Below, in pieces: positions 570 to 10,541 of a stretch of 64,000 bases of DNA. The notes under the pieces were generated by a model. The model did not search any database. It had not been told where the DNA came from and worked only from the letters and a program-made list of their open reading frames with translations. Location: the NCBI GenBank assembly GCA_016184105.1, contig JACPDI010000022.1, positions 124,001 through 188,000 of the forward strand. Reading direction: 5' to 3'. Position 1 is the first letter of the stretch. Every line of letters starts with the position of its first letter. The DNA comes from Acidobacteriota bacterium. Its GTDB lineage: Bacteria; Acidobacteriota; Vicinamibacteria; Vicinamibacterales; 2-12-FULL-66-21. The position numbers and the translations under genes were made by a program.

Positions 570-1019
570 TCAGTGCTTCATGCCGCCCATGTTCTTCACC
601 ATGGGGCACTGCATCATGCCCTGCGCACCCGCCTGCATGTGCTCCATCATGTGCTGCATCATGCCGCCCTGCATCTTCTCCATGCCGTCGCGCATGGCTT
701 TGCGCTGCGTCACGAGCTCATTGACCACAGCGGCGGTGGCATCCACCTTCGCCTGACCCGTCGCGCTGTTCATCGTCTGGGCGAGCGTGTCGAGCCCGGC
801 GTCCATTTCCTTCATGTGCGCCATCATCTTCTGGCGCGCGGCCATCATGGCCTGGCAGTCGGTCGTCATCTTGCCCTGCATGCCCGACGTTTGCGGTTGC
901 GGCGGCTCGGCTGGATGCTGGTGCTGCGCGGCCTGGGCGAGACGTGCCGCGTGCGCCACTGGAGCACCCGCAATGCACACCAATGCGGCCATCAGCAGGG
1001 ATCCTTTCAGCATGCGCAT
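570..1019 (-). CDS. Met/His-rich exported protein of unknown function
   Basis: A 149-residue protein with a Sec signal peptide (about residues 1-24, ending VAHAA). The mature part is exceptionally rich in methionine, with runs such as MMAARQKMMAHMKEM and a C-terminal third in which Met, Gln and His dominate (GGMMQHMMEHMQ). One CPM sits near the end. Such Met/His clusters are known in periplasmic copper-handling proteins, but no family is recognised, so metal binding is inference. The start at 1019 is chosen because GGAGG lies about 8 bases upstream and the signal peptide begins there. It runs away from the lgt operon, with a 46-base gap. Confidence 0.75.
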   Translation of the reverse strand: MRMLKGSLLMAALVCIAGAPVAHAARLAQAAQHQHPAEPPQPQTSGMQGKMTTDCQAMMAARQKMMAHMKEMDAGLDTLAQTMNSATGQAKVDATAAVVNELVTQRKAMRDGMEKMQGGMMQHMMEHMQAGAQGMMQCPMVKNMGGMKH

Positions 1020-1065
1020 GTGACGTGACCTCCGTGAGAAAAACGTTCTGTTCAGTATGCTCCTG

Positions 1066-1818
1066 TCAGTATCCTCCCGCCGCGCGCCGGGGGCGTGGAA
1101 AATTGCGGCAGAGTTGCACCAGCCCCGCTCCAATGGCCGCGAGGGATGCCCAGTGGGCGACACTCATGCCCAGCGCCACCGGAGGATTCACCCTGATCCA
1201 TTCGATGGCAAACCGGATGGCACCGGCGCCGATGAGATAAGCGCCCAGCACGGCGCGATCGGGGACGCCGTTGCGGCGCAACCGTCCGAGAGCCCAGGCG
1301 AGCGGCAGCAACGCAAGGCATTCGTAAAGCTGCGTGGGATGGACGGGAACATCGGTCGGCGGCAGCCCTTCCGGGAACGCGACGGCCCACGGCACGCCGG
1401 ACGGACGGCCGTAATCGTCGCCGACCAGGAAACAACCAATCCTTCCTATCGCATGGCCGATGGCCAATGCCGGCGTCGCCGCCGCCAGAACCGGAATGAC
1501 GGGCAGGCGTTTCGCGACGATCGTGATCAGTCCTGCGGCGAGCCCGCCGGCGAGCCCGCCGTACCAGCTGAGCCCTCCGCGGGACAACAGCAGGCCGCGC
1601 CACGGCTCCTCGCCAAAATGTTCGGCGAACCACAGGAGCTTTGCTCCCGCAAGCCCTCCAACGACACCCGAGATCGCGGCATCCACGGCCCCTGGTGCAA
1701 GGTTCGAGCGGCCCAATTCCCTGGAGAAGATCCAGAGCCCAATCAGCGCTCCCAGCGCCACCATCACGCCGAAGCTGGTCACGACGAAGTCGCCGAAGCG
1801 CACGAGCTCTGGATACAT
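1066..1818 (-). CDS. lgt: Prolipoprotein diacylglyceryl transferase
   Basis: Transfers diacylglycerol from phosphatidylglycerol to the lipobox cysteine of prolipoproteins in the inner membrane. The 250-residue protein has seven hydrophobic segments. It carries the family signature GHAIGRIGCFLVGDDYGRP near residues 121-139, the SWYGGL motif near 84 and VHPTQLYE near 160, so it looks active. It is the last gene of a leftward run (TupA-like lipoprotein, cytochrome c, small exported protein, lgt), 8 bases after its neighbour. Lipoproteins encoded here, such as the TupA-like protein and the L,D-transpeptidase, are typical substrates. Confidence 0.95.
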   Translation of the reverse strand: MYPELVRFGDFVVTSFGVMVALGALIGLWIFSRELGRSNLAPGAVDAAISGVVGGLAGAKLLWFAEHFGEEPWRGLLLSRGGLSWYGGLAGGLAAGLITIVAKRLPVIPVLAAATPALAIGHAIGRIGCFLVGDDYGRPSGVPWAVAFPEGLPPTDVPVHPTQLYECLALLPLAWALGRLRRNGVPDRAVLGAYLIGAGAIRFAIEWIRVNPPVALGMSVAHWASLAAIGAGLVQLCRNFPRPRRAAGGY

Positions 1819-1826
1819 CGAACGCG

Positions 1827-2153
1827 TCAGCGCTTCGGCCGATTGGCCAGTCGCACTTCCCTGGCGACCAGGGTTTCCTTACCCGCGGCATCTTTCTCAG
1901 TCATCGCCGTCACGACGACGCGGTCGCCAACCTTGATCTCCGATCGCGTGGCGGTCGTCTTTTCGCGCAGGATCTTCGTCTTTTCGTTCACCACCACCAT
2001 CGAGACCTTGCCGTCCCTGGCGGCTTTGACCTCGAATCCATTCTCGTGAATCACCGACACGGTCCCCATGATTCTGTGATCGTGTCCCTCGTGTGCGATG
2101 GCGGGCGTGCCAACGCAGGCAAGCAGCGCGAGCGCCAGAACAATCCGTCTCAT
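1827..2153 (-). CDS. Small exported beta-barrel-like protein (DUF5666-like)
   Basis: A 108-residue protein with a signal peptide ending AIAHEG, then a His-rich start (HEGHDHR) and a compact all-beta stretch. The pattern MGTVSVIHENGFEVKA, TKILREKTTATRSEIKVGDRVVV resembles DUF5666/OB-like periplasmic proteins that often sit beside metal-efflux or cytochrome genes. Function unknown. The HEGHDH segment could bind metal (inference). Its ATG overlaps the stop of the upstream cytochrome c gene (ATGA), so translation is probably coupled. Confidence 0.65.
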   Translation of the reverse strand: MRRIVLALALLACVGTPAIAHEGHDHRIMGTVSVIHENGFEVKAARDGKVSMVVVNEKTKILREKTTATRSEIKVGDRVVVTAMTEKDAAGKETLVAREVRLANRPKR

Positions 2154-2782
2154 TGATGCTCTCCATGCCTATGACGCGGCCGCGGGGGCGCAGGGGCGTT
2201 GTCTTCCTCCGACAGGAACCGGCGCGTCTCTTCTTCCTCGCGCCATTGGTCCGCGCTCTTCGGGTTCAAGCCTTTCATCTCCTCCAGCTCGGCGTCGGTG
2301 AGTTTCGGCAGGTGCCGGATGAACTGGACGAGGTGCCAGCTCGCCGTTTCACCCTCAGAAGTACCCGTCGCCCACGCCGGCATGCCTGTGAAGCGCACGC
2401 CGTTTTCGATGATGTAGAAGAGCTCGCCGTCGGTGAGATCCTGCGTCGCCCCCTTACGCATGTCCGGCGCCGGCGGATACAGGCCCTTGCCCATTTCCGC
2501 GTCGCCGCTGCCGTCGTTCGCGTGGCACACCGCGCAGTGATCGGCAAAGTGCTCCAGGCCGCTCCGGAGGGATTCGCGGGTCTGCGCCACCGGTGCGCGC
2601 AGATCGCGGGCGGCGCGAGGGATGGCCGCGGCGCGCAAGCGGCGGGCGACAACCGTTTCCGCACGGCCCGGCGTCGCGCGCGCGCTGATCCCGCCCGCGG
2701 CAAACCAGGCCGCCGCGGTCACCGCGAGAGCCCCGACGAGGGCGAGCAGGACCACCACCACACGGAGCAGAACTTGAAGCAC
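2150..2782 (-). CDS. Membrane-anchored monoheme cytochrome c
   Basis: A 210-residue protein with one N-terminal membrane helix (VLLRVVVVLLALVGALAV), a linker and a class I cytochrome c domain: heme-binding CAVCH at residues 83-87 and a probable axial Met in FTGMPAW near 134. The C-terminal tail is charged, Pro-rich and ends in HRHGEHQ. The GTG at 2782 is preferred because GAGGAGG lies four bases upstream. An ATG at 2809 overlapping the upstream stop is the alternative. It follows the TupA-like gene and overlaps the next gene by four bases. It probably carries electrons in the periplasm. A link to the nearby decaheme conduit is only inferred. Confidence 0.88.
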   Translation of the reverse strand: MLQVLLRVVVVLLALVGALAVTAAAWFAAGGISARATPGRAETVVARRLRAAAIPRAARDLRAPVAQTRESLRSGLEHFADHCAVCHANDGSGDAEMGKGLYPPAPDMRKGATQDLTDGELFYIIENGVRFTGMPAWATGTSEGETASWHLVQFIRHLPKLTDAELEEMKGLNPKSADQWREEEETRRFLSEEDNAPAPPRPRHRHGEHQ

Positions 2783-2808
2783 GCTGCCTCCTCGGTCGCG
2801 GGCGCCCA

Positions 2809-3645
2809 TCACCGCGGCAGGTCGAACGGCCGGCTACCCTCGCGGTCCGACGGCCACGCGGTAAAGGCCGCCGCGTCCCTGACTCGATATCCGGCAATCA
2901 CATCACGGCCGGGGCCGCGGCACAACCACTCGGCAAAGCGTCGCGCCGCCGGCGAGGCGTTGCGCGGGAGAATGACCGCGTACGTATTGATCAGCGCCGG
3001 ATCGCCGCCGAAGAGGATCTGCACGGACACTGCGGGGGCCAGCTGCACCACGGTGGCCCGATCGCAGAGAGTGTAGGCGCCGATCTGCGACGCCACGCGC
3101 AGCGTGCCGGCCATGCCCTGCCCTGCCACGATCAGGCGGCTTCCCGTGGGGCGCGCTGCCGCCGCGCGCCACAGGTCTTCCTCCCGCTCGTGCGTTCCCG
3201 AGCTGTCGCCGCGTGAAACAAACGTGGCGTCGAGCCGCGCGATTCGCGCCATCGCTTCTCTCGCCGTCCGGGCGCCGCCGACCCCGGCGGGATCGGCGGG
3301 TGGACCGGTGAGAACGAAGTCATTGAACATGATCTTGCGGTAGGACCAGCCGGCGTTGCGCGCGAGGAATTCCGCTTCGCGCTTCGGGGCATGGCTGATG
3401 ACCACCGCCACGTCGCCGCGCTCGAGCATCCTCAGGGCTTGTCCGCTGCCGACCAGGTGAGCGCGAAGGGTGATCCCCGTCCGAACGCGAAAGGCGGGCA
3501 CCAGGGTGTCAAGCAGGCCGCTATGCCCCACGCTCGTGGTGGTCGCAAGGACGAGGAGCGGCGGGGCATCGTCGCGGCAGCCGGCAGAGGCCAGGAGGAG
3601 GACCAGGCAGGCGGCCGCGCGAGTCGTGATGGTCACGTCGATCAC
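2809..3645 (-). CDS. TupA-like oxyanion-binding lipoprotein (tungstate/molybdate type), orphan
   Basis: About 278 residues: lipoprotein signal with lipobox LASAGC, then LVLATTTSVGHSGLLDTLVP and FVSRGDSSGTHERE, both diagnostic of the TupA/PBP-like-2 family that binds tungstate or related oxyanions. No TupB permease or TupC ATPase gene is nearby, so it may serve a transporter elsewhere or act as a sensor. The GTG at 3645 (or 3636) fits the signal peptide and leaves a proper divergent spacer before the regulator at 3749. The longer open frame would overlap that regulator. Tungstate/molybdate enzymes often feed respiratory chains, which suits the cytochrome neighbour. Confidence 0.8.
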   Translation of the reverse strand: MIDVTITTRAAACLVLLLASAGCRDDAPPLLVLATTTSVGHSGLLDTLVPAFRVRTGITLRAHLVGSGQALRMLERGDVAVVISHAPKREAEFLARNAGWSYRKIMFNDFVLTGPPADPAGVGGARTAREAMARIARLDATFVSRGDSSGTHEREEDLWRAAAARPTGSRLIVAGQGMAGTLRVASQIGAYTLCDRATVVQLAPAVSVQILFGGDPALINTYAVILPRNASPAARRFAEWLCRGPGRDVIAGYRVRDAAAFTAWPSDREGSRPFDLPR

Positions 3646-3684
3646 AAGCCTATAACGGACTTCGCGGATCTTCCTGACGCCACT

Positions 3685-3702
3685 CTTCAGGAATTCTTCA
3701 GG
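3685..3702. promoter_or_regulatory. Putative OmpR-family operator, copy 1 (CTTCAGG-4-CTTCAGG)
   Basis: Two perfect CTTCAGG heptamers separated by AATT, an 11-base period as in PhoB-type boxes. It lies 47 bases before the ATG of the response regulator and about 40 bases from the divergent TupA-like start. A near copy occurs at 5851-5868, so the regulator probably binds its own promoter (inference). Confidence 0.6.
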
Positions 3703-3748
3703 TTCGTCACCGGCGCAATCGGAGTTACCCTTGGGCTGACAGCCATCC

Positions 3749-4432
3749 ATGCGAGTGCTGATTGTCGAGGACGACGCGAAGGTTGCGGCGGCGGTCAAGG
3801 CGGGGCTGGCGGCCGAGGGCTACGATGCGGTGGTGTCTCGCAGCGGCGAAGACGGCTACTTCCGCGTGACAACCGAGCCGTTCGACGCGTTGGTCCTCGA
3901 CCTGGGCCTGCCGGGACGGAGCGGGCTCGAGGTTCTCTCGGGGCTCCGCGGGCGCGGGTTGGCGATCCCCGTCCTGGTGCTGACCGCCCGGGACAGCGTC
4001 GATGACCGCGTGGTCGGCCTGGACGCGGGGGCCGACGATTATCTGGTCAAGCCGTTCGCCTTCGCGGAGCTCGTCGCACGCCTGAGAGCCCTGCTGCGGC
4101 GCGGCCGGCCCGACGAAACCCATCGGCTGCGGCTCGCGGACCTCGAGCTCGATGCCGCGACGCGCACGGTCGATCGCGGCGGCCAGGCGATCGAGCTGAC
4201 CGCTCGCGAGTTCCAGTTGCTCGAGTACCTCCTGCGTCACCAGGGACAGGTCGTGTCCCGGGAGATGCTGGCGCGCGACGTGTGGAAGGAGGTCGCGCGC
4301 GCGACGCCGCTCGACAACGTGATCGACGTGCACATCACCAGGCTGCGGAAGAAGGTCGACCTGGGATTCTCCGCGCGCCTGATCCACACGGTCCGGGGCG
4401 TGGGATTCCTGGTCAAGGAGGAAGAGACGTGA
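3749..4432 (+). CDS. OmpR/PhoB-family response regulator
   Basis: A 227-residue two-domain regulator. The receiver domain (1-120) has acidic VEDD at 7-10, phospho-acceptor Asp in ALVLDLGLPG at about residue 51, and Lys in LVKPF. The C-terminal winged-helix domain (about 130-225) shows ELTAREFQLLEYLL and the DNA-recognition and wing segment VIDVHITRLRKKVD. It is followed by its kinase with a GTGA overlap. The paired operators at 3685 and 5851 suggest it controls itself and the decaheme cytochrome operon. The signal is unknown; the locus suggests redox or terminal-acceptor sensing. Confidence 0.93.
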   Translation: MRVLIVEDDAKVAAAVKAGLAAEGYDAVVSRSGEDGYFRVTTEPFDALVLDLGLPGRSGLEVLSGLRGRGLAIPVLVLTARDSVDDRVVGLDAGADDYLVKPFAFAELVARLRALLRRGRPDETHRLRLADLELDAATRTVDRGGQAIELTAREFQLLEYLLRHQGQVVSREMLARDVWKEVARATPLDNVIDVHITRLRKKVDLGFSARLIHTVRGVGFLVKEEET

Positions 4433-5844
4433 CCGTGTGGCGGCTGCGCACGCGCCTGACGGCGTGGTTCGCCGGGTCGATCATGGCGATCCTGGTGCCG
4501 TTCCTCGCCGGCATCCTCGCCCTCGAATGGCGCTCGATGCGCGCCGCGCTCGACCACCATCTGTCCGAGGATCTCGAGGTCGCCGCGCAGATGCTCGTGC
4601 GGTTCGACTCGGTCGTCGGCTGGCGGTCGACCATGGACACCGACCCGGGGTACGACGCGGGTCCCCAGCGGTGGGTCGAAGTGTACAACTCGGGCGGGGA
4701 GCCGCTGTTTCTCCGCGGCGTGCCCAGGAGTGCCGCGATCCGTGCCGCGATCGCGCCGCCGCCGCCCGGCTCGCAGGGTTTTCGCACGCTGAAGACCCCG
4801 GCCGGAGCCCACGTCCGCACGCTGACCGTTGAGCGCGACTTCGGCGACCACCGCTTGTGGGTTCGCGTCGCGCGGAGCGAAGACGGGCTGCGGCAGGACC
4901 TGAGCGATCTCATCCTCCTCTTTTCCATCGGCGCACCGCTCGGCGTGCTGGCGGCGGCCTTTGCCGGCCATCTCATCGCCGGACGCGCGCTCGCGCCCCT
5001 CGGACGGATGGCCGAGCGTGCGCGCTCCATCAGCGCCGAGCACCTCGCCGAGCGACTGCCGGTCGAGAACGCCGACGACGAGCTGGGCCGGCTCGCCACG
5101 GTGTTCAATGACACCTTCGCGCGGCTCGAGTCGTCTTTCGAGAGGCTGAAACGCTTCACGGCCGATGCCTCCCACGAGCTGCGCACGCCGCTGACCGCGA
5201 TCCGCAGCGTGGGCGAGGTGGCGCTGCGCGAGGCCCACGACGAGGCCGCATACCGCGAGATCATCGGAAGCATGCTCGAGGAAGTGGAGCGCCTCTCGCG
5301 AGTCGTCGAGACGCTGCTCATGCTCTCGCGGTGGGAGAGCGGCGGCGCCAGGCCCGCCCTGGAGACGGTGGACCTTCAGGCCATTACCGACGACGTGGTT
5401 GGCCAGGTCGCGGTGCTGGCCGAGGAGCGCGACGTGACCATCGACGTTCGGCTCGCGGGGCCGCTCGTCGTGGTCTGCGACCCGGTCATGGCCCGGCAGG
5501 CGATCCTGAACGTCGTCGACAACGCGATCAAGTTCACGCGCCCGCGCGGACGCGTCACGATCTGGTCCCGCACGACGGCAGAGGGGCAGGAGCTGATCGT
5601 CGACGACGAGGGCGCCGGGATCCCGCCGGACCAGCGGGAGCGCGTGCTGCAGCGGTTCTACCGGATCGGCGAGGGACGTGGCCGCGCCGAAGGGGGTGCC
5701 GGCCTCGGCCTGGCCATCGTCCACTGGGCGCTCACCGCGAACAAGGGGCGCATTGCGATCGACGGGAATCCGGCCGGAGGCGCGCGGATCGTCCTGTCCC
5801 TGCCCCCTCCCGACGCGTCCCGCGCCGCGCAGAACCGATCCTGA
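4429..5844 (+). CDS. HAMP-containing sensor histidine kinase
   Basis: Membrane kinase of 471 residues. A first TM helix (about 14-35), a periplasmic region of about 130 residues and a second TM near 165-185 precede a HAMP segment. HisKA follows with His249 in DASHELRTPLTAIR, then HATPase_c with N box NVVDNAIKF, DDEGAGIP and GAGLGLAIV. The start GTG at 4429 overlaps the TGA of the response regulator gene, so the pair is translationally coupled. The sensory domain matches no family I recognise. It presumably phosphorylates the adjacent regulator and so controls the cytochrome-porin genes downstream. Confidence 0.92.
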   Translation: MTVWRLRTRLTAWFAGSIMAILVPFLAGILALEWRSMRAALDHHLSEDLEVAAQMLVRFDSVVGWRSTMDTDPGYDAGPQRWVEVYNSGGEPLFLRGVPRSAAIRAAIAPPPPGSQGFRTLKTPAGAHVRTLTVERDFGDHRLWVRVARSEDGLRQDLSDLILLFSIGAPLGVLAAAFAGHLIAGRALAPLGRMAERARSISAEHLAERLPVENADDELGRLATVFNDTFARLESSFERLKRFTADASHELRTPLTAIRSVGEVALREAHDEAAYREIIGSMLEEVERLSRVVETLLMLSRWESGGARPALETVDLQAITDDVVGQVAVLAEERDVTIDVRLAGPLVVVCDPVMARQAILNVVDNAIKFTRPRGRVTIWSRTTAEGQELIVDDEGAGIPPDQRERVLQRFYRIGEGRGRAEGGAGLGLAIVHWALTANKGRIAIDGNPAGGARIVLSLPPPDASRAAQNRS

Positions 5845-5850
5845 ACGCGA

Positions 5851-5868
5851 ATTCAGGAACTCTTCAGG
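5851..5868. promoter_or_regulatory. Putative OmpR-family operator, copy 2 (ATTCAGG-4-CTTCAGG)
   Basis: ATTCAGG and CTTCAGG separated by AACT, the same 7-4-7 geometry as the site at 3685. It lies between the kinase stop and the decaheme cytochrome ATG (66 bases upstream of it). A possible -10 (TAGACT) begins at 5890, so the second half-site lies just upstream of where a -35 element would be expected, as in class II activation. Confidence 0.62.
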
Positions 5869-5933
5869 TCCACTCCAGCCGCCAGTTCCTAGACTTGGAC
5901 CTGACGTCATTTCTATCAGGAGTCATTCAAACA

Positions 5934-6854
5934 ATGCTGCGACATCGCTGGACCTGGCTCGCAGGAGCCACCGGTACGCTTGCTCTGGCCATCGGCTGGA
6001 GCGTCGTATCGGCCAAGACGCCCGCAAAGCCGGTCGATTGGGCTGCGCTCAACCCCGCGTTTGCCGGCGCGACGTTCGTCAACAACCCGGAAACGTGCCG
6101 GACGTGCCACGAGGACGCCATGGCGCCCTACGCGCACACGACGCACGCGCTCGCGTTCGGGACGACGCCCCCCGAGACCAGCGGCGAGTGCGAAAGCTGC
6201 CATGGGCCGCGGAGCGCGCACGTGGAGAACCCGACGGCGGAACTGCGGATCGACCGATCCTCGAAGGCGGGGTCCGCCATCTGCCTGCAGTGCCACCAGG
6301 GCAAGTCACGCTTCGGCTGGAAGGCGGGCGCGCACCACTCGAACGACGTGAGCTGCTCGTCGTGCCACGCCGTGATGGCGAAGAAGAGCGAGCGGGCGCT
6401 CCTCGTGAAAGCGACGGTGACCGAGACCTGCTACCAGTGCCACGGCGAGGTCCGGGCCGAGACGAACAAGATGTCTCACCACCCGGTGCGCGAGGGGCGC
6501 ATGGACTGCGCGGCGTGCCACAACGCGCACGGGGGGACGCCGCGCCTGCTGATCAAACCGACGGTCAACGAGACGTGCGTCACGTGCCACGCCGAGAAGC
6601 GCGGTCCGTTCGTATGGGAGCACGCGCCGGCGCGTGAAAGCTGCGCGACGTGCCACACGCCGCACGGCTCCAACCAGCGCAACCTCCTGACGGCCAAGGA
6701 CCCGTTCCTGTGCCTCAGCTGCCACAACTACGGCGGGCACATCAACCTGCCGCGGTACAACCGCGTGAGCAACCCGTACGGCAACGGCTGCTCGAACTGC
6801 CACCTGAGCGTGCACGGATCGAACCATCCGTCCGGCGCGAAGCTGACTCGATAA
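5934..6854 (+). CDS. DmsE/MtrA-like decaheme c-type cytochrome
   Basis: A 306-residue exported cytochrome with ten CxxCH motifs (CRTCH, CESCH, CLQCH, CSSCH, CYQCH, CAACH, CVTCH, CATCH, CLSCH, CSNCH) and many extra histidines for bis-His ligation. The N-terminal signal is GTLALAIGWSVVSA. Size, heme number and the barrel gene 11 bases downstream match the DmsE/MtrA family, which sits inside an outer-membrane barrel and passes electrons through it. The open frame extends far upstream inside the kinase gene. The ATG at 5934 is chosen for the signal peptide and AGGAG upstream. It probably receives electrons from inner-membrane or periplasmic donors and is regulated by the adjacent two-component system. 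Confidence 0.93.
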   Translation: MLRHRWTWLAGATGTLALAIGWSVVSAKTPAKPVDWAALNPAFAGATFVNNPETCRTCHEDAMAPYAHTTHALAFGTTPPETSGECESCHGPRSAHVENPTAELRIDRSSKAGSAICLQCHQGKSRFGWKAGAHHSNDVSCSSCHAVMAKKSERALLVKATVTETCYQCHGEVRAETNKMSHHPVREGRMDCAACHNAHGGTPRLLIKPTVNETCVTCHAEKRGPFVWEHAPARESCATCHTPHGSNQRNLLTAKDPFLCLSCHNYGGHINLPRYNRVSNPYGNGCSNCHLSVHGSNHPSGAKLTR

Positions 6855-6865
6855 GGAGGATCGCC

Positions 6866-9325
6866 ATGAGACGGATCATCGTGACCCTGGCGGTCCTCTG
6901 CGCCGCCCCCGCATTCGCCCAGACACCGCCGCCGCCAGCGCCGAGCGTGGCCGCCCCGGCCTCGCCGCGCGTTGGGGGCAGCGTGACCACCGGCGTCCAG
7001 CAGTTCGACAACTCGTCCAACTCGAGCAAGCTCGGGGAGTATCGCGACCTGCGCGACGACTTCTTCCTCCCGAACGCCTCCATCAGCGGCAGCAACGCGG
7101 CGACCGGCTGGTTCTTCAACCTGAGCGCGTTCAATCTCACGCGGGACGACCAGACGATTCTCGCGCGCGGCGGCCGTCCGGGCGCGTGGAGCTTCCAGGC
7201 GGACTGGAACGAGACGCCGCACAACTTCAGCAACAAGGCGGTGACGCCGTACATCCGCCGCGGCCCCGGGCTCTTCGAGCTGCCGGCGACGGTTCCGATC
7301 GCGTTCAAGAAGCTCGCGACCGGCGCGGCTGACGCGAACGGCGTGCTCGCGAGCGATGCGCTCGTCGCCGCCTACCAGTCCACGTTTCTCGCGGCGACGC
7401 CGCTCGCGACGCAGACCAACACCGGGCATTTCGCGCTTGGCTGGAGCGAGTCCGACGCGATCAGCCTCGCGGTGGTCTACGACCGCCGCGAGAAGACCGG
7501 CCTGAAGGCCGCGTACGGACCAATCGGCGACCGTCCCCCGCGGACCCTCAACATCCAGTTGACCGAACCGGTGGACTACCGCACGAACGACATCACACTC
7601 TCCGCCGAGCACGACGGCGGCCGCTATCAGCTGCGGGCCGAGTATCTGTTCTCCGACTTTGCGAACCAGATCGACACGCTGCGCTGGCAGAACGCCTTCA
7701 CCACGGCGCCAGCCGGCGCCGAGTTCGACGTCTGGGATCGCCGCGTGGGGACGTACGGCGCCCGGCCCCTGCCGCCGGACAACCGCTATCACAACGCCAC
7801 GGCCAGCGCCGGCATCGACATGCCGCGCGACAGCCGCCTGACCGCGACCGTGTCGTACGGGCGTCTCGAACAGGACGAAACCCTGCTGCCGTACGCCACG
7901 TTCAACGCCATTGCCAATCCGGCGTTGCCGCGGAGCACGGCGGAGGCGCTCATCAAGACCACGCACCTCGCCGCCGACTACGTGATCGCGCCGGCGCCCC
8001 GGCTGAACGTCCGTGCGTTCTTCCGGCGCACCGATCTCGACAACGAGACTCCGTCCGACCGATGGCAGTACGTCACGTCGGACACCACGAGCCTCACCGG
8101 CACGGTGTCGTACGTGAACAAGCGCGTGAGCCTGCCCTACGCGTGGGACCGGCAGAACGCCGGGGCGGAGACGACGTGGCGGCTGCCGGCGCGCAGCACG
8201 TTCACGCTGGGATACGAGCGGGAGTCGATCGGCCGCGATTTCCGCGAGGCTGACACGACCGAGGACATGCTGCGCGCGACGTGGCGGATGCGGCCGGCGC
8301 GCGGCGTCTCCGTGCAGGGGCGCTACGTATACGGCACCAGGGACGGCGGCACCTACAACGGCACGGTCACACACGAAGGCTACTGGTACGCGCCGTCGGA
8401 GGCGAATGACAACAACAACCCGCTGCTGACGTTCGACAACCATCCCGATACGCGCCGCTACGACGTCTCCGACCGGGAGCGGCAGCAGTTCGACCTGACG
8501 CTCAACCTGACGCCGGGCGATCTGTACGCCGTCTCCGCGTTCGTACGCTATCGCAACGACGACTTCGCATCGGACGTCGTACCGACGCAGCCGCTGGCGG
8601 GCACCACGCTCGCCGACCGCAATGCCACCACGCCCGGCGATCAGCTCGGGCTGCTCGAAGACAGGCGGCTGCGATACGGCGTGGACCTCTTCGCGCAGCC
8701 GGGCGCGCGCGTCATGCTGAACGCGTTCCTGAACTTCGACGAGGGCACCAGCCTGGAGCGGTCGATCGAGTTCAATGAGAACAACAAGGCGAATCCGAGC
8801 GCCATTGCCAACTCGGTGCTCGGGCCGTGGACACGGGCGAGCAGCCAGTGGACCGCCGACTTCGACGATCGGACCTGGAGCGGCGGCCTGGGCGCAACGC
8901 TTCAGATCGTTCCTGAACGCCTGGTGCTGATCGCCGACTACACGGCTTCGCTCGCCGAGGTCGACATCACCTACGGGGGCTTCGGGCTCACCAGCTTCGA
9001 CGGCGCGCCGCTCGCGCCGAACCACGAGTTTGCGTTCTCGACGCCGCCGGTGATTCGCGAAGATCTCCAGGTCCTGAACCTGCGCTTCGAGATTCCGATC
9101 CGGTCAATCGTGCTGATCGCCGGCTACAGCTACGAGACCTACACGCTCGAGGACTGGCAGCAGGGATCGAGCGCGCCGTGGGTGGAAGCAGTCGGGAGCG
9201 GCACGTTCCTTCGGGACAGCTCGCGGTCCCATCAGTGGGGCAACCGGCTGTTCACCCTGGGCACGTACCTGGCGCCCAGCTACGACGCGCACGTGGGCTT
9301 CGCGGGGTTTAGGTACCGATTCTAG
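6866..9325 (+). CDS. MtrB/PioB-family outer-membrane beta-barrel partner of the decaheme cytochrome
   Basis: An 819-residue protein with a clean signal peptide (ending APAFAQ) and a perfect AAGGAGG 5 bases before ATG. The remainder is alternating polar/aromatic beta strands typical of a large porin and ends in FAGFRYRF, the C-terminal aromatic signature for BAM insertion. Position after the DmsE-like gene and the repeated NLTRDDQ and DRRVGTYG features fit MtrB/PioB proteins, which sheath MtrA-like cytochromes. It is longer than the roughly 700-residue Shewanella protein. No N-terminal CxxC is seen. No outer-surface MtrC/OmcA-type cytochrome follows, so the final acceptor is unknown. Confidence 0.88.
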   Translation: MRRIIVTLAVLCAAPAFAQTPPPPAPSVAAPASPRVGGSVTTGVQQFDNSSNSSKLGEYRDLRDDFFLPNASISGSNAATGWFFNLSAFNLTRDDQTILARGGRPGAWSFQADWNETPHNFSNKAVTPYIRRGPGLFELPATVPIAFKKLATGAADANGVLASDALVAAYQSTFLAATPLATQTNTGHFALGWSESDAISLAVVYDRREKTGLKAAYGPIGDRPPRTLNIQLTEPVDYRTNDITLSAEHDGGRYQLRAEYLFSDFANQIDTLRWQNAFTTAPAGAEFDVWDRRVGTYGARPLPPDNRYHNATASAGIDMPRDSRLTATVSYGRLEQDETLLPYATFNAIANPALPRSTAEALIKTTHLAADYVIAPAPRLNVRAFFRRTDLDNETPSDRWQYVTSDTTSLTGTVSYVNKRVSLPYAWDRQNAGAETTWRLPARSTFTLGYERESIGRDFREADTTEDMLRATWRMRPARGVSVQGRYVYGTRDGGTYNGTVTHEGYWYAPSEANDNNNPLLTFDNHPDTRRYDVSDRERQQFDLTLNLTPGDLYAVSAFVRYRNDDFASDVVPTQPLAGTTLADRNATTPGDQLGLLEDRRLRYGVDLFAQPGARVMLNAFLNFDEGTSLERSIEFNENNKANPSAIANSVLGPWTRASSQWTADFDDRTWSGGLGATLQIVPERLVLIADYTASLAEVDITYGGFGLTSFDGAPLAPNHEFAFSTPPVIREDLQVLNLRFEIPIRSIVLIAGYSYETYTLEDWQQGSSAPWVEAVGSGTFLRDSSRSHQWGNRLFTLGTYLAPSYDAHVGFAGFRYRF

Positions 9326-9484
9326 GGGGTTCGAGGGGGTCGAAGGGGTCGAGGGGTTCGAAGGGGTTCGAAGCGAGGGGTTCGAGAAGTTCGACGGGTT
9401 CCGGCTCCCGGCTCGCTGGAACGCATCGAACCATCGAACCTCTCGAACCCTTCGAACCCCCTCGAACCCCTCGAACCTTTCGAT
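9326..9484. repeat. TTCGA-rich inverted array between convergent genes
   Basis: Left half (9326-9398) is built of G-tracts joined to TTCGA (units of the GGGGTTCGA type). The right half (9426-9484) carries the complementary TCGAACCCC units, so the whole can fold into a long hairpin around a roughly 25-base loop. It starts at the base after the barrel stop codon and ends 4 bases before the stop of the convergent regulator gene. It may act as a bidirectional terminator. The array is irregular and has no CRISPR-like spacers. Confidence 0.8.
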
Positions 9485-9488
9485 TCAC

Positions 9489-10541
<1,053 letters not shown>

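What the first reader, a model, noticed from the sequence alone, without database searches (positions are those of the whole stretch)
5934..9325. Porin-cytochrome conduit (decaheme plus barrel) without an outer-surface cytochrome
Ten CxxCH motifs in a 306-residue exported protein and an 819-residue barrel with a C-terminal aromatic signature follow each other with a perfect ribosome site. Known: MtrA/DmsE and MtrB form trans-outer-membrane electron conduits. Here no MtrC/OmcA-like cytochrome or DmsAB reductase is adjacent, so the terminal acceptor or donor is open, and the barrel is longer than known MtrB proteins. This implies extracellular electron transfer or a cell-surface reductase.
Basis: partly seen in the sequence, partly recalled or inferred. 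Interest (0 to 1): 0.72.

Follow-up and report, generated by a model that had tools for sequence, protein, structure and literature searches.

The report
Regulated MtrAB-type outer-membrane electron conduit
This Acidobacteriota genome encodes a heme protein and an outer-membrane barrel that very probably carry electrons across the outer membrane; such pairs are already known without an outer-surface partner, but this one comes with its own sensor-regulator and a matching DNA switch conserved in relatives.

Summary
Window 5934-6854 encodes a 306-aa exported decaheme cytochrome (10 CxxCH, DmsE/MtrA family). Window 6866-9325 encodes an 819-aa MtrB/PioB-type barrel whose predicted fold best matches MtrB of the solved Mtr complex (6r2q). 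No OmcA/MtrC-type surface cytochrome lies next door, and none reaches the family cut-off anywhere in the assembly. That absence is ordinary: PioAB and MtoAB also lack MtrC, and ~800-residue barrels are normal in this clade. (1) The genome has five MtrAB pairs; this one belongs to a separate clade found in Acidobacteriota and Gemmatimonadota. (2) It sits in a cassette, response regulator - histidine kinase - MtrA - MtrB, with the two-component genes adjacent in 10 of 12 informative loci. (3) A direct repeat TTCAG-N6-TTCAG lies upstream of mtrA in 9 of 9 Acidobacteriota loci with the adjacent regulator and in none of three without it; another copy precedes the regulator gene. Best reading: a signal-regulated, MtrC-less outer-membrane electron conduit. 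Direction and extracellular partner are undetermined. A NapC-type pentaheme/b561/11-heme module elsewhere in the genome is the best candidate inner-membrane partner. New member of a known kind.

The parts
3686..3701 (+). TTCAGGAATTCTTCAG box upstream of the response-regulator gene, between it and the divergent TupA-like gene
   Evidence: second copy of the box; an exact TTCAG-N6-TTCAG also precedes the regulator gene in L034 and L057, and one-mismatch copies do in L058 and L060
3749..4432 (+). OmpR/PhoB-type response regulator, nearest to the heavy-metal CopR/CzcR/SilR subfamily (226 bits, below the 279-bit cut-off)
   Evidence: orthologs adjacent to MtrAB
4429..5844 (+). sensor histidine kinase (HAMP-HisKA-HATPase), nearest to the heavy-metal CopS/CzcS/SilS subfamily (259 bits, below the 292.6-bit cut-off)
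5852..5867 (+). TTCAGGAACTCTTCAG direct repeat (11-bp period), candidate response-regulator operator of mtrAB
   Evidence: same box upstream of mtrA in 9 of 9 Acidobacteriota loci with the adjacent regulator; 1 of 13,500 dinucleotide shuffles of those regions has it
5890..5895 (+). TAGACT, candidate -10 element 22 nt after the box; similar hexamer at the same spacing in several orthologs
   Evidence: inspection of aligned upstream regions
5934..6854 (+). MtrA/DmsE-type exported decaheme c-type cytochrome, 306 aa
   Evidence: TIGR03508 238 bits, cut-off 192; 6r2q_A, 5.8e-56
6853..6859 (+). AAGGAGG ribosome-binding site of mtrB
6866..9325 (+). MtrB/PioB-type outer-membrane beta-barrel, 819 aa
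   Evidence: PF11854 308.7 bits, cut-off 23; 6r2q_B best fold match
2150..2812 (-). monoheme cytochrome c with N-terminal membrane anchor, second gene of the divergent group; possible periplasmic partner (inference)

Best explanation
A two-gene MtrAB-type porin-cytochrome conduit. The decaheme MtrA is exported, threads through the MtrB barrel and carries electrons between the periplasm and the cell surface, without an MtrC-type surface cytochrome, so the outermost heme of MtrA is itself the exchange site (inference from the solved Mtr complex and from PioAB/MtoAB). Transcription is switched on by the adjacent two-component system: the histidine kinase senses an envelope signal (perhaps a metal ion, from family resemblance only) and the OmpR-type regulator binds TTCAG-N6-TTCAG repeats upstream of mtrA and of its own gene (inferred from footprinting). 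Periplasmic partners are probably the membrane-anchored monoheme cytochrome of the divergent genes and/or a NapC-type pentaheme + cytochrome b561 + 11-heme module encoded elsewhere on the same contig. The most likely direction is outward, to soluble Fe(III), shuttles or conductive solids; inward flow as in PioAB/MtoAB is not excluded.
For: MtrA: TIGR03508 238.4 bits above its 192.2 cut-off; aligns over residues 31-305 to MtrA of the solved complex, 5.8e-56; 10 CxxCH plus 11 invariant non-motif His among four orthologs, enough for ten bis-His hemes. MtrB: PF11854 308.7 bits over 49-819; AlphaFold model (mean pLDDT 64) has 26 strands of 7 or more residues in its strand list and its best PDB match by far is 6r2q_B, E 4.4e-27, TM 0.74 on the target; the next is 1.2e-8. 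MtrA and MtrB are adjacent in every ortholog locus where both are visible. Regulator genes adjacent in 10 of 12 informative loci. Box upstream of mtrA in 9/9 Acidobacteriota loci with an adjacent regulator and 0/3 without; absent within the 20-kb stretches around the four other MtrAB pairs; a perfect match to the consensus occurs once in the genome. Partner module: next to the mtrAB ortholog in L061, its 11-heme and b561 parts also near it in L036; pentaheme gene present in 11 of 12 mtrAB-bearing genomes versus 65 of 181 others, Fisher p = 1.8e-4, not corrected for phylogeny.
Against: No biochemical data. MtrB misses the curated TIGR03509 cut-off (208 versus 240 bits). The MtrB model is only moderate and the MtrA model failed (pLDDT 30), so cytochrome-in-barrel fit is not tested. 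The Gemmatimonadota locus L037 has a regulator pair but no box. The pentaheme module also occurs in many genomes without this conduit. The divergent cytochrome c is not adjacent to the conduit in relatives.
Confidence: 0.72

Rival explanations
1. Same conduit, opposite direction: electron uptake from Fe(II) or minerals, a PioAB/MtoAB analogue.
For: PioAB and MtoAB lack an MtrC and are proposed to run inwards (PMC6831781, PMC8805035). No OmcA/MtrC reaches a cut-off here. Relatives L036 and L061 carry Rieske/cytochrome b genes near mtrAB.
Against: No PioC/HiPIP or MtoD gene next to it and no PioA-like long N-terminal extension in this MtrA. MtoA/PioA do not form a function-specific clade, so sequence cannot tell direction (PMC8805035).
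Confidence: 0.3
2. A DmsEF-type module whose terminal reductase is encoded elsewhere: MtrAB hands electrons to a surface molybdoenzyme.
For: Another MtrAB pair in the same genome (C51) has a molybdopterin oxidoreductase and an NrfD protein next to it.
Against: No molybdoenzyme next to this pair or next to the orthologs in the calls inspected, except one about 4.5 kb downstream in L034/G001 with unrelated genes between. The C51 enzyme belongs with its own MtrAB.
Confidence: 0.08
3. A metal-resistance or detoxification device: the kinase/regulator are nearest to copper/heavy-metal systems, and neighbouring genes encode a Met/His-rich exported protein, so the pair would dump electrons on toxic metals rather than respire.
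For: Nearest NCBIfam models of the pair are cztR/silR/copR and cztS/silS/copS. A Met/His-rich protein at 570-1019 has a 50% identical relative about 2 kb upstream of the L057 cassette.
Against: Both regulator scores lie below the curated cut-offs, and OmpR-family resemblance does not fix the ligand. The Met-rich gene is not conserved near the other orthologs.
Confidence: 0.12

Closest known systems
MtrCAB of Shewanella oneidensis (structure 6r2q, MtrA and MtrB chains)
   Same: Decaheme MtrA homologous over its whole length; MtrB-type barrel; adjacent genes
   Different: No MtrC/OmcA; longer barrel (819 versus 695 residues); dedicated two-component pair with operator boxes
PioAB(C) of Rhodopseudomonas palustris TIE-1
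   Same: MtrA/MtrB homologs without an extracellular decaheme cytochrome
   Different: PioA has a long processed N-terminal extension, absent here; no PioC next to it; pio is controlled by FixK (PMC3050613) rather than by an adjacent OmpR-type pair
MtoAB of Sideroxydans/Gallionella
   Same: Decaheme plus about 26-strand porin, usually without MtrC
   Different: No mtoD/cymA-type genes next to it; different phylum; adjacent regulator
Group-2 porin-cytochrome complexes of karst MAGs, partly Acidobacteriota (PMC13264449)
   Same: Small decaheme next to a 25-36-strand porin, often with NapC/NirT-type inner-membrane cytochromes, some with petBC
   Different: The section read describes no two-component pair or operator
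GSU2203/GSU2204 of Geobacter (NF041028, NF041027)
   Same: Related decaheme/porin pair (231 and 90 bits)
   Different: Both far below those models' cut-offs (325 and 350)

Membership tests
MtrA/DmsE decaheme cytochromes (TIGR03508) | score above the curated cut-off | tested here: met
   238.4 bits versus 192.2
MtrA/DmsE decaheme cytochromes (TIGR03508) | ten CxxCH motifs and ten possible distal His | tested here: met
   10 motifs; 11 invariant non-motif His among 4 orthologs
MtrB/PioB barrels | Pfam PF11854 gathering score | tested here: met
   308.7 bits versus 23, residues 49-819
MtrB/PioB barrels | NCBIfam TIGR03509 curated cut-off | tested here: not met
   208.1 bits versus 240.05; three of the four paralogous barrels of the genome also fall below it
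MtrB/PioB barrels | fold of MtrB | tested here: met
   best match 6r2q_B, E 4.4e-27, TM 0.74 on the target; model of moderate confidence
MtrCAB | adjacent extracellular decaheme MtrC/OmcA | tested here: not met
   none in the window or above the cut-off in the genome
DmsEFAB | adjacent DmsAB reductase | tested here: not met
   neighbours read
PioABC | long processed N-terminal extension of PioA; PioC next to it | tested here: not met
   first heme motif begins at residue 55; no such gene among the annotated neighbours
MtoAB | adjacent mtoD/cymA | tested here: not met
CopRS/CzcRS heavy-metal two-component systems | TIGR01387 and TIGR01386 curated cut-offs | tested here: not met
   226.4 versus 279.2 and 259.1 versus 292.55 bits
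MtrAB-type conduit | MtrA inserted in MtrB and transfer of electrons across the outer membrane | not testable with these tools
   no complex prediction; MtrA model failed

The most novel reading that the evidence does not exclude
A distinct clade of MtrC-less MtrAB conduits, shared by Acidobacteriota and Gemmatimonadota, that is switched on by its own envelope-sensing two-component system through a conserved TTCAG-N6-TTCAG operator, so that the ligand of the kinase would reveal the extracellular electron partner.
Probability: 0.4. Interest if true: 0.45.

Novelty: new member of a known kind. Interest (0 to 1): 0.3.

Why it matters
Acidobacteriota are abundant soil bacteria whose use of extracellular electron partners is poorly known. 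A genome with five MtrAB pairs and no recognised MtrC suggests several parallel outer-membrane conduits. The conserved regulator and operator give a concrete handle: finding the signal of the kinase would point to the substrate of this conduit.

Tried and rejected
1) MtrA structure: the AlphaFold run with four sequences failed (mean pLDDT 30), so no fold search was made with it. 2) Regulon search: besides the two boxes beside the regulator, other genome matches carry 1-2 mismatches; those in L067 and L068 lie inside called genes, and the rest were not followed up, so no further target is claimed. 4) MtrC elsewhere: TIGR03507 and PF22113 gave only sub-cut-off hits. Among 100 genomes of the class only two have a TIGR03507 match at 1e-20, one of them over the cut-off. 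5) 'Unusually long barrel': rejected, orthologs have the same length. 6) Conserved role of the divergent TupA-like/cytochrome genes: not found near the orthologs. 7) Literature: no description of an MtrAB-linked two-component cassette was found in the held library, which is not proof of absence.

Full report
Observation. All 20 Cys of the cytochrome lie in heme motifs; none of 20,000 shuffles of the same residues reaches ten motifs.

Identity. The cytochrome passes the curated cut-off of the DmsE/MtrA family (TIGR03508, 238 versus 192 bits) and aligns over residues 31-305 with MtrA of the solved Mtr complex 6r2q (5.8e-56). Eleven non-motif His are invariant among four orthologs, enough for ten bis-His hemes. 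The barrel matches Pfam MtrB_PioB over residues 49-819 (308.7 bits) but misses the stricter TIGR03509 cut-off (208 versus 240), as do three of the genome's four other barrels. Its AlphaFold model (seven sequences, mean pLDDT 64) is a large barrel with 26 strands of seven or more residues in the tool's list. Foldseek places 6r2q_B far ahead of all other PDB chains (4.4e-27; next 1.2e-8).

Genome context. The window lies on a 207-kb contig of a 4.24-Mb, 96%-complete assembly. Record titles of relatives are Acidobacteria and Gemmatimonadetes MAGs. The genome has five MtrAB pairs: C7 (followed by two small proteins with CxxCH or CxxxCH), C51 (with a pentaheme cytochrome, a molybdopterin oxidoreductase and NrfD), C65 (alone), C22:92 kb (with NrfD, a ferredoxin-type protein and a tetraheme cytochrome) and the window copy. 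No OmcA/MtrC model reaches its cut-off anywhere. In the tree of MtrA the window copy groups with orthologs from other genomes, apart from the four paralogs (100/100).

Conserved cassette. P0002 orthologs occur in 12 of 193 genomes of the class and in Gemmatimonadota. MtrA and MtrB stay adjacent. In 10 of 12 informative loci an orthologous response regulator and/or histidine kinase is adjacent: upstream in the window, L034, L055 (kinase only, contig edge), L057, L058, L059, L060 and L065; downstream in L062 and L037. It is missing in L038 and L061. L036 begins too near mtrA to judge the upstream side and has none downstream.

Operator. The sequence TTCAG-N6-TTCAG (11-bp period, as in PhoB/OmpR-type operators by general knowledge) lies upstream of mtrA in all nine Acidobacteriota loci with the adjacent regulator, including L062 where the regulator is downstream, and in none of the three loci without one. 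The divergent Gemmatimonadota locus L037 lacks it. One of 13,500 dinucleotide shuffles of these regions has such a box. Several loci show TAGACT or a similar hexamer about 22 nt after the box. A second box precedes the regulator gene in the window, L034 and L057, with one mismatch in L058 and L060. The full consensus matches without mismatch once in the genome, at mtrA, and the box is absent within 20 kb stretches around the four other MtrAB pairs. I infer that the regulator controls mtrAB and itself; binding is not shown. The nearest named families of the pair are heavy-metal regulators, but both score below the cut-offs, so the signal is open.

Partners. In L061 the mtrAB ortholog lies directly beside an 11-heme cytochrome, a b561-type protein and a NapC-type pentaheme cytochrome, with Rieske and 8-heme genes nearby; L036 has mtrAB, Rieske/cytochrome b and 9-, 17- and 11-heme genes in one run. 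The window's genome has the pentaheme, b561 and 11-heme genes together at C22:37-41 kb. The pentaheme gene is present in 11 of 12 genomes with this mtrAB and in 65 of 181 others (Fisher p = 1.8e-4, uncorrected for relatedness). This is the best candidate quinone-side partner, by inference. The divergent monoheme cytochrome c (2150-2812) is a second candidate, without support from synteny.

Comparison with the known. MtrC-less MtrAB homologs are well established: PioAB (PMC6831781), MtoAB (PMC8805035, PMC10734462). MtrA/MtoA/PioA do not cluster by direction (PMC8805035). PMC13264449 reports decaheme plus 25-36-strand porin clusters, some with NapC/NirT-type and petBC genes, in MAGs that include Acidobacteriota. 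PMC10654088 lists PioAB homologs in Acidobacteria. This locus is thus a new member of a known kind. What I did not find described is the two-component cassette with its operator; pio is controlled by FixK (PMC3050613).

Verdict. Shown: the genes, their families, the barrel fold, absence of a recognisable MtrC, five pairs, the cassette and the conserved box. Inferred: conduit function, regulation by the adjacent pair, partners. Unknown: direction, substrate, signal.

Noticed in passing
window 9326-9490: Intergenic run of TTCGA-centred 9-10-bp repeats forming a very long hairpin between the convergent mtrB and sigma-54 activator genes (-112.9 kcal/mol, z -8.9). Probably a bidirectional terminator or repeat element.
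   Followed up: partly
L022 2898-12671 (G000:C51): Another MtrAB pair in a cluster with a pentaheme cytochrome, molybdopterin oxidoreductase, NrfD and a monoheme cytochrome: a possible DmsEF-like system with an enzyme.
   Followed up: partly
L021 6573-10952 (G000:C7): MtrA with a long acidic, Pro-rich N-terminal stretch, followed by MtrB and two similar small proteins, one with CxxCH and one with CxxxCH.
   Followed up: no
L036 1-13702: Gemmatimonadota run of mtrAB, three monoheme cytochromes, Rieske/cytochrome b and 9-, 17- and 11-heme cytochromes, with a further barrel-like ORF at the end that is similar to MtrB.
   Followed up: partly
L064 9743-12328 (G087): OmcA/MtrC-type decaheme protein over the family cut-off, with no MtrAB in the 20-kb stretch read; neighbours look like TonB-dependent receptors.
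   Followed up: no
window 570-3798, minus strand: Divergent genes: TupA-like binding protein, membrane-anchored cytochrome c, small exported protein, prolipoprotein diacylglyceryl transferase and a Met/His-rich exported protein.
   Followed up: partly
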